A stretch of DNA of 64,000 bases from Acidimicrobiales bacterium (GTDB lineage Bacteria > Actinomycetota > Acidimicrobiia > Acidimicrobiales > Bog-793). How positions within the stretch are numbered: position 1 is the stretch's first letter; every line of letters begins with the position of its first letter. The notes under the pieces are model-generated. The model saw only the letters and a program-made list of their open reading frames with translations, was not told the DNA's origin and did not search any database. The translations under genes and the position numbers were made by a program. This document shows positions 40,844-41,535 of this stretch, piece after piece. Location: positions 1 through 64,000 of the forward strand of contig DATGLP010000013.1 in assembly GCA_035294085.1 (NCBI GenBank). Reading direction: 5' to 3'.

Positions 40844-41028
40844 GAGGGCACGGAGGTTGGCGCGTGGTGCGCGTGGACCTGCACGGCGCGCAGCGTGCCC
40901 TCTGGTGCGCTGCGCTCCTAATGGGAGCGGAACGGCCTCCGGTGGGAGGCTGGTCTCCGAGCCACCTGGCGGTGAGCACTGCGTGCTCCCGAGCTTCGAG
41001 CTCTACTGCTCGAGCGTGCCCCGCCAGG
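40844..41028 (+). ncRNA. Candidate IS110-type bridge RNA (structured left-end RNA)
   Basis: Four hairpins in 185 bp: GAGGGCACG/CGTGCCCTC enclosing 41 nt (40844-40902), GCTCC/GGAGC (40914-40928), GCCTCC/GGAGGC (40935-40950) and CCTGGCGG/CCGCCAGG extended by GCAC/GTGC, with an inner stem (40965-41028). The stretch ends about 106 bp before a deleted IS110 transposase on the same strand. In the IS110 group a bridge RNA of about 180 nt is encoded just upstream of the transposase. Identity as a bridge RNA is inference; the hairpins are directly visible. Confidence 0.45.
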
Positions 41029-41134
41029 CGGTGAGGAGTTGGACGGCTGGTGGGGTGTCGTGCCTCGAGCACTGATCCATTAGGTCGCCGCATCACTCCT
41101 CGGGCTCGTCGATGGTCGAGAGAGAGGAGGAGCG

Positions 41135-41419
41135 GTGCTCGTTGTCGGAGTGGACTGGGCCGAGGACCACCACGAGTGCTGTGTGCTCGCCGAGGACGGA
41201 GCGGTGCTCGCCAAGCGCCGGGTCGCCGACAGCGTGGTCGGGATCTCGGAGCTCGCCCGCGCCTACTACGACAAGCTCCGCAGACGCGGCAAGAGCCATC
41301 GCCAAGCGCTCCGCCAGCTCGGCAATCGCCTCGTCGGCATCTTGCACCACTGCCTCGAGCACGGTGAGCTCTACGACGAGAACCGTGCGTGGCCACCCTC
41401 GATCGCGGCGGCCGCTTGA
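41135..41419 (+). pseudogene. IS110 family transposase, internally deleted
   Basis: A 94-residue frame from GTG 41135 (after GAGGAGG) that keeps only the two ends of a roughly 400-residue transposase. The N-terminus VVGVDWAEDHHECCVLAEDG is the first strand of the DEDD RuvC-like domain, with its first catalytic Asp. It runs directly into the family's C-terminus, YYDKLRRRGKSHRQALRQLG, NRLVGILHHCLEHGELYDEN, RAW. The join is near 41255. The middle, including the serine-containing Tnp domain, is gone but the frame is preserved. It cannot be an active recombinase alone. Confidence 0.85.
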
Positions 41420-41446
41420 CGGCTTCGGGCCGTGGGGTGTCTAGCA
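41417..41446 (+). mobile_element. Putative right-end sequence of the IS110 relic
   Basis: CTTGACGGCTTCGGGCCGTG followed by GGGTGTCTAG, immediately after the transposase stop. As I recall, a short sequence of the form CTTGAC...GGTGTCTAG follows the stop of many actinobacterial IS110 transposases, which would make this the right end. Exact boundaries are not determined because IS110 elements lack inverted repeats and target duplications. Confidence 0.4.
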
Positions 41447-41535
41447 TGGAGGAGCGCAGCGCCCGTGCACCCGGCCAGGACGCGTCACGCGCGGCGGCGC
41501 GCCCACGGTCGGCGCGGTCGGACCGGAGGAGGACC

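What the first reader, a model, noticed from the sequence alone, without database searches (positions are those of the whole stretch)
40844..41028. Four strong hairpins just upstream of a deleted IS110 transposase: candidate bridge RNA
The sequence shows stems of 9, 5, 6 and 8 (+4) bp in a 185-nt window, all ending about 106 nt before an IS110-type transposase start on the same strand. IS110-group elements encode a roughly 180-nt bridge RNA in that position with loops that pair to target and donor DNA. If this is one, its loops would show the former target and donor sequences, and an element that kept the RNA while losing most of its recombinase would be a non-autonomous derivative that could be mobilised by a full-length relative.
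Basis: partly seen in the sequence, partly recalled or inferred. Interest (0 to 1): 0.66.

Follow-up and report, generated by a model that had tools for sequence, protein, structure and literature searches.

The report
Bridge RNA in gutted IS110 element
This is a real guide-RNA ("bridge RNA") gene inside a bacterial jumping gene that has lost most of its recombinase, so it can no longer jump alone but still carries the ends and RNA that an intact relative in the same genome could use; it is a clear new example of a mechanism described in 2024.

Summary
The bridge-RNA idea is right, but the coordinates are off. The element runs 40918-41442, CT core to CT core. It is an in-frame 930-bp deletion of an IS110-group insertion sequence whose intact copy lies elsewhere in the genome (98-99% identical over the shared parts). 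The first 74 nt of the finding are host DNA, and it stops before the donor loop; the RNA is about 40929-41110.

Evidence: 60 relatives share the structure with compensatory changes (0/500 shuffles). The right target guide matches each element's own right flank at 95% of four positions (41% permuted, n=61), the left guide at 68% of seven (32% permuted, n=64); 17 further loci agree. The donor guides match the element's own ends. A promoter motif forms across the predicted circle junction in 57/57 relatives.

The window copy lost 310 of 404 codons and most catalytic residues. Its ends and donor loop are intact, so it is probably mobilisable in trans. Its RNA alone carries A-to-C at 41011, where the right target guide pairs with the CT core, so it is probably an impaired guide.

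Nothing was tested experimentally. Verdict: a new, defective, non-autonomous member of a known system. Two solo left-end remnants are a small lead.

The parts
40918..41442 (+). whole deleted IS110-group element, core CT to core CT (525 bp; the intact sibling is 930 bp longer)
40911..40917 (+). left target half-site (LT, host DNA), TGCGCTC
   Evidence: matches the left target guide at 5 of 7 positions
40918..40924 (+). left core CT plus right donor sequence (CTAATGG)
   Evidence: complementary to the right donor guide in 60 relatives, one non-pairing cell
40929..41110 (+). predicted bridge RNA; start inferred from the junction promoter, end approximate
   Evidence: conserved structure, covariance-model hit 40962-41083 at 114 bits (this sequence was in the model's alignment); no transcript data
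40929..40956 (+). 5' stem-loop
   Evidence: poorly aligned among relatives, covariation not shown
40964..41028 (+). target-binding loop: stem 40964-40979 with 41016-41028, hairpin 40991-40994 with 41000-41003
   Evidence: 11 of 14 stem pairs and 4 of 4 hairpin pairs have changes on both sides (coordinates)
40982..40988 (+). left target guide CGTGCTC
41006..41012 (+). right target guide CTGCTCG; intact siblings have CTGCTAG, so A to C at 41011 in the core-pairing base
41032..41102 (+). donor-binding loop: predicted outer stem 41032-41039 with 41095-41102, hairpin 41060-41063 with 41069-41072
   Evidence: the hairpin hardly varies, the outer stem is a single-sequence prediction
41051..41059 (+). 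left donor guide TGGGGTGTC, identical to the right end of the element plus the first core base (41433-41441)
41077..41083 (+). right donor guide CCATTAG, complementary to 40918-40924
41135..41419 (+). recombinase remnant, 94 aa: residues 1-40 fused in frame to 351-404, deletion join at 41254/41255
41416..41421 (+). -35 box TTGACG of the promoter expected across the circle junction; -10 TCTAAT = 41440 + core CT + 40920-40922
   Evidence: conserved in 57 of 57 distinct relatives
41434..41442 (+). left donor sequence GGGGTGT plus right core CT
41443..41447 (+). right target half-site (RT, host DNA), AGCAT
   Evidence: matches the intact right target guide at 4 of 5 positions

Best explanation
The feature is the bridge RNA gene of an IS110-group insertion sequence that lost 310 recombinase codons by an in-frame internal deletion. 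In intact siblings the recombinase is expected to excise the element as a circle; the joined ends (RE-CT-LE) form a promoter that transcribes a bridge RNA of about 180 nt; its first loop pairs with the two half-sites around a CT in target DNA and its second loop with the two element ends, so that the recombinase joins the two CT cores. The window copy, or its parent, inserted this way with an intact guide at TGCGCTC-CT-AGCAT. The recombinase was lost, and the right target guide acquired a change opposite the CT core. It cannot move itself, but its ends and donor loop are unchanged, so the recombinase and bridge RNA of intact siblings in the genome could probably excise and re-insert it. Shown by sequence: element, ends, deletion, conserved structure, guide-target and guide-donor matches, promoter motif. 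Inferred: transcription, recombinase binding, circle formation, mobilisation in trans, impairment by the change at 41011, and the order of events.
For: Intact sibling in the same genome. IS110 Pfam domains and relation to solved IS621 and ISCro4 transposases. Covariation: 16 pairs with changes on both sides, 0/500 shuffles reach any measure, slid controls 29-47% paired vs 98.6%. Target guides match own flanks: RT 94.7% vs 41.1% permuted (max 52%), LT 67.9% vs 32.4% (max 39.7%), 20000 permutations; further loci 92.6% vs 46.7% and 58.8% vs 31.2%. Own-genome flanks fit the guides. Right donor guide complementary to the left end; left donor guide equals the right end. Junction promoter TTGAC(A)-17/18-TCTAAT. 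Trans mobilisation of an ISEc11 derivative and bridge RNA in trans for IS621 are published (PMC11187229, PMC11208160).
Against: No RNA or recombination data. No second copy of the 525-bp derivative, so mobility after the deletion is unproven. The left guide fits this site at only 5 of 7. The left donor match is nearly invariant among relatives, so its covariation is weak. No empty site was found in the family.
Confidence: 0.85

Rival explanations
1. It is a bridge RNA gene by descent but a dead fossil: recombinase gone, target guide mutated, no longer transcribed or mobilised; the element is simply decaying.
For: Core-pairing change at 41011 seen in this copy only; single copy of the derivative; degraded orphan RNAs are found in several relatives.
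Against: Ends, donor guides and the rest of the RNA are still identical to the sibling, so siblings should recognise it as a donor; the loss looks recent.
Confidence: 0.35
2. The structured stretch is mainly a cis-acting leader that regulates recombinase expression, not a guide.
For: It lies directly upstream of the recombinase start on the same strand; [quoted passage not shown]
Against: Loops match host target flanks element by element and the element ends, which leader regulation does not predict. It could act in addition.
Confidence: 0.04
3. Chance hairpins in very GC-rich DNA.
For: Part of the quoted interval is an unrelated host palindrome; fold energies of the donor half are unremarkable.
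Against: Covariation, guide matching and recovery of the same RNA by a covariance model upstream of related recombinases.
Confidence: 0.01

Closest known systems
IS621 bridge RNA system (IS110 group, E. coli; PMC11208160, PMC11208158)
   Same: RNA in the long left end upstream of the recombinase; 5' stem-loop, target-binding loop, donor-binding loop; left guides read as the top strand, right guides complementary to the top strand; CT core; promoter made by joining the ends; DEDD plus serine recombinase.
   Different: Actinobacterial branch with a 404-aa recombinase (the IS621 chain in the PDB is 328 aa); other guide and donor sequences; the window copy lacks the recombinase core and has a changed core-pairing base in the right target guide.
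seekRNA of ISEc21 and ISEc11 (IS110 and IS1111; PMC11187229)
   Same: RNA-guided target choice by IS110-type elements; upstream non-coding region as in ISEc21; movement of a gutted element with transposase and RNA in trans shown for ISEc11.
   Different: ISEc11 carries its RNA downstream (IS1111 type); the gutted ISEc11 was engineered, whereas this is a natural derivative.
Non-autonomous IS derivatives (MITE-like internal deletions)
   Same: Ends retained, transposase lost, intact relative in the genome.
   Different: Also retains the guide RNA gene; no terminal inverted repeats; single copy found.

Membership tests
IS110 family, IS110 group | DEDD RuvC-like domain plus Transposase_20 domain with conserved serine | tested here: met
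   Intact sibling: PF01548 and PF02371 over cut-off; D7, E59, D99, D102 and S317 align with IS621 D11, E60, D102, D105 and S241 by reading the alignment. The window copy itself retains only the first of these.
IS110 family, IS110 group | long left end with the RNA, short right end (opposite of IS1111) | tested here: met
   217 nt between the left core and the start codon, 21 nt between the stop codon and the right core
IS110 bridge RNA | conserved RNA structure with target- and donor-binding loops | tested here: met
   donor outer stem and 5' stem-loop not shown by covariation
IS110 bridge RNA | target guides complementary to the flanking target, varying with it between elements | tested here: met
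IS110 bridge RNA | donor guides complementary to the element's own ends | tested here: met
   right donor guide; left donor guide (identity, little variation)
IS110 bridge RNA | guides pair with the CT core on both sides | tested here: inconclusive
   Right guide: siblings and the other extracted relatives have AG, this copy CG at 41011-41012, so not met for this copy; left guide reads CC opposite the CT core here.
IS110 bridge RNA | transcribed from a promoter made at the circle junction and bound by the recombinase | not testable with these tools
   promoter motif present in 57/57 distinct relatives; no RNA or binding data
Mobile non-autonomous derivative (MITE-like) | both ends intact and an intact sibling present | tested here: met
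Mobile non-autonomous derivative (MITE-like) | has moved after losing its recombinase (several copies of the same derivative) | tested here: inconclusive
   one copy found in the draft genome and no other in 34 further genomes of the family; copies collapsed at contig ends cannot be excluded

The most novel reading that the evidence does not exclude
Besides ordinary deletion derivatives there are 'solo left-end' forms: in the same genome (C14, about 92 bp of left end) and in G022 C18 (the whole left end with the complete bridge RNA). In both an internal CT is joined directly to host DNA that fits the right target guide at 4 of 4 positions. If these are products of the recombinase using an internal pseudo-donor CT (a mini-circle of the left end that re-inserts), IS110 elements would spawn recombinase-free elements that are little more than a guide RNA gene. 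Microhomology deletion (TCT or TCTA) explains both joins equally well so far.
Probability: 0.15. Interest if true: 0.55.

Novelty: new member of a known kind. Interest (0 to 1): 0.33.

Why it matters
It shows that bridge RNA architecture, including element-by-element agreement of guides with flanking target and with the element's own ends, holds in an actinobacterial IS110 branch spread over many genomes and can be recovered from sequence alone. It gives a natural example of an element that kept ends and RNA but lost the recombinase, with an intact sibling in the same genome, so mobilisation in trans of IS110 elements can be tested with native parts. A single natural substitution in the core-pairing base of the target guide gives a ready-made test of how strictly the core must pair.

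Tried and rejected
Rfam at gathering and relaxed thresholds: nothing relevant. Empty-site search in the family with the joined flanks: no homologous empty site. Search for further target sites (GSTCCTAGCA) in the own genome: none; CTAG is rare here, and the control (pattern read backwards) is not a matched one, so this says little. Single-sequence folding as evidence: judged weak, because guides pair with other parts in minimum-energy folds. Generality of solo-left-end joins at CT: checked on the loci fetched by covariance-model searches; among parsed loci lacking most of the recombinase only G022 C18 showed CT joined to a guide-matching right target just after the RNA, so no general claim is made. 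In that scan 37 of 87 loci were not parsed by the pattern used. The first placement of the element ends by BLAST extension (40913, 41444) was corrected to the CT cores after comparing relatives. Chance hairpins and pure leader regulation were considered and set aside (see rivals).

Full report
WHAT IS THERE. The window copy matches, at 98-99% identity, a full-length element in contig C12 of the same genome in two blocks, separated there by 930 bp that are missing in the window. The C12 element encodes a 404-aa recombinase with Pfam DEDD_Tnp_IS110 and Transposase_20 and is related in sequence to the solved IS621 and ISCro4 transposases. In the window, residues 1-40 are fused in frame to 351-404, giving a 94-aa frame without E59, D99, D102 and S317, which align with catalytic residues of IS621. 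Four contig ends carry further copies that the assembly could not resolve (C28, C30 left ends; C15, C13 right ends), and C14 carries a left-end remnant.

ENDS. Relatives fetched from other genomes start at CTAATGG and end at GGG(G/A)T(G/A)TCT, with few exceptions. The shared dinucleotide is CT. In the window the cores are 40918-40919 and 41441-41442. The first 74 nt of the finding therefore belong to the host. The joined host flanks read GCGCTGCGCTCCT-AGCATGG-AGGAGCGCAGCGC, a 13-bp inverted repeat (read), so the element sits in a host palindrome. The strong hairpins in 40844-40917 are likewise host sequence.

STRUCTURE. In 60 aligned left ends RNAalifold recovers the target-loop stem and hairpin and the donor hairpin, and also pairs the element start with the right donor guide. 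Counting pairs (element start with right donor guide included): 98.6% of cells are standard pairs, 16 pairs have changes on both sides, 150 cells have double changes (37.7 in shuffles), 0/500 shuffles reach the observed value on any measure, and slid versions fall to 29-47% paired. A covariance model of the central 131 positions finds this RNA in further genomes of the family, order, class and phylum, most strong hits standing upstream of a related recombinase. The window and C12 copies score 114 and 118 bits; both were in the training alignment.

GUIDES. The right target guide, read as reverse complement, agrees with the first four bases after the core CT in the element's own right flank at 94.7% of positions, against 41.1% when flanks are permuted among elements (maximum 52% in 20000; n=61). 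The left guide agrees with the seven bases before the core at 67.9% against 32.4% (maximum 39.7%; n=64), and only in one register. In 17 loci not used before, as judged by their guide and flank sequences, the values are 92.6% vs 46.7% and 58.8% vs 31.2%. In the own genome all five known right flanks match at 4 of 5 positions; at CT sites of the window this happens in 1.1%, and AGCA follows only 1 of about 3200 CT. The right donor guide CCATTAG is complementary to core plus right donor CTAATGG in all 60 relatives but for one non-pairing cell, with compensatory changes at one position. The left donor guide TGGGGTGTC equals the right end TGGGGTGT-C in this family. Related elements are not independent, so the permutation values describe strength rather than exact probability.

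PROMOTER. Joining right and left end gives TTGACG-18 nt-TCTAAT in this family. In 57 distinct relatives the -10 is TCTAAT every time (partly by construction, since the ends were located by their motifs), and the best -35 is TTGACA in 42 and one mismatch away in 15, always 17 or 18 nt apart; shuffled right ends give a perfect box in 0.1%. The -35 box overlaps the recombinase stop codon. Promoter formation across the circle junction is known for IS110 elements (PMC11208160; PMC11187229).

THIS COPY. Four substitutions separate the first block from C12, one of them just outside the core. One, A to C at 41011, falls on the right-guide base that pairs with the T of the core. C12, C28 and C30 have A there, and so do the other extracted relatives. 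For IS621, pairing of the RNA with both strands of the CT core is strongly preferred (PMC11208160), so this copy's RNA is probably a poor guide for a CT target. Its donor loop and ends are identical to the sibling's, so sibling recombinase with sibling RNA should recognise it as a donor. Movement with components in trans has been shown for ISEc11 (PMC11187229), and bridge RNA in trans for IS621 (PMC11208160). No second copy of the derivative was seen, so actual mobility is unproven.

RELATED REMNANTS. G135 C114 (L165) is another natural internal deletion that keeps an RNA, a short recombinase start and a right end. Degraded RNAs without a recombinase occur in G006, G007, G009, G023 and G261. 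Two solo left ends (G000 C14; G022 C18) join an internal CT to host DNA that fits the right guide at four of four positions. Both joins share TCT or TCTA with the normal right end, so microhomology deletion is a sufficient explanation, and other truncated loci did not show this join.

VERDICT. It is a new, defective member of a known system, not a new kind.

Noticed in passing
window 40905-40919 joined to 41443-41457: The host target site is a 13-bp inverted repeat with a 7-nt spacer (GCGCTGCGCTCCT-AGCATGG-AGGAGCGCAGCGC); the C14 site is also palindromic (CACGCGCT...AGCGCGTG).
   Followed up: partly
L008 (G000 C14) near 1511-1609, and L040 (G022 C18) 1501-1723: Solo left ends whose internal CT is joined to host DNA fitting the right target guide; microhomology TCT or TCTA, or use of a pseudo-donor.
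   Followed up: partly
L058 2111-2240 (Mycobacterium barrassiae contig end): A 124-nt left-end fragment that ends in the right target guide is followed directly by a complete left end; tandem arrangement, or an assembly effect at the contig end.
   Followed up: no
G000 whole genome: GSTCCTAGCA occurs nowhere in the genome although the same pattern read backwards occurs 51 times; CTAG is probably avoided, so the guide's best target looks almost absent.
   Followed up: no
right ends of relatives, window 41416-41421: The TTGACA box of the circle-junction promoter overlaps the TGA stop codon of the recombinase in most relatives.
   Followed up: partly
G000 C11:47459-47716 and C23:87844-88089 (L009, L010): Two other IS110-type recombinases in the same genome, not close relatives of this element by DNA.
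   Followed up: no
L165 (G135 C114), RNA at 1501-1627 on the minus strand: A second natural internal-deletion derivative: bridge RNA, about 29 recombinase codons and a right end.
   Followed up: partly
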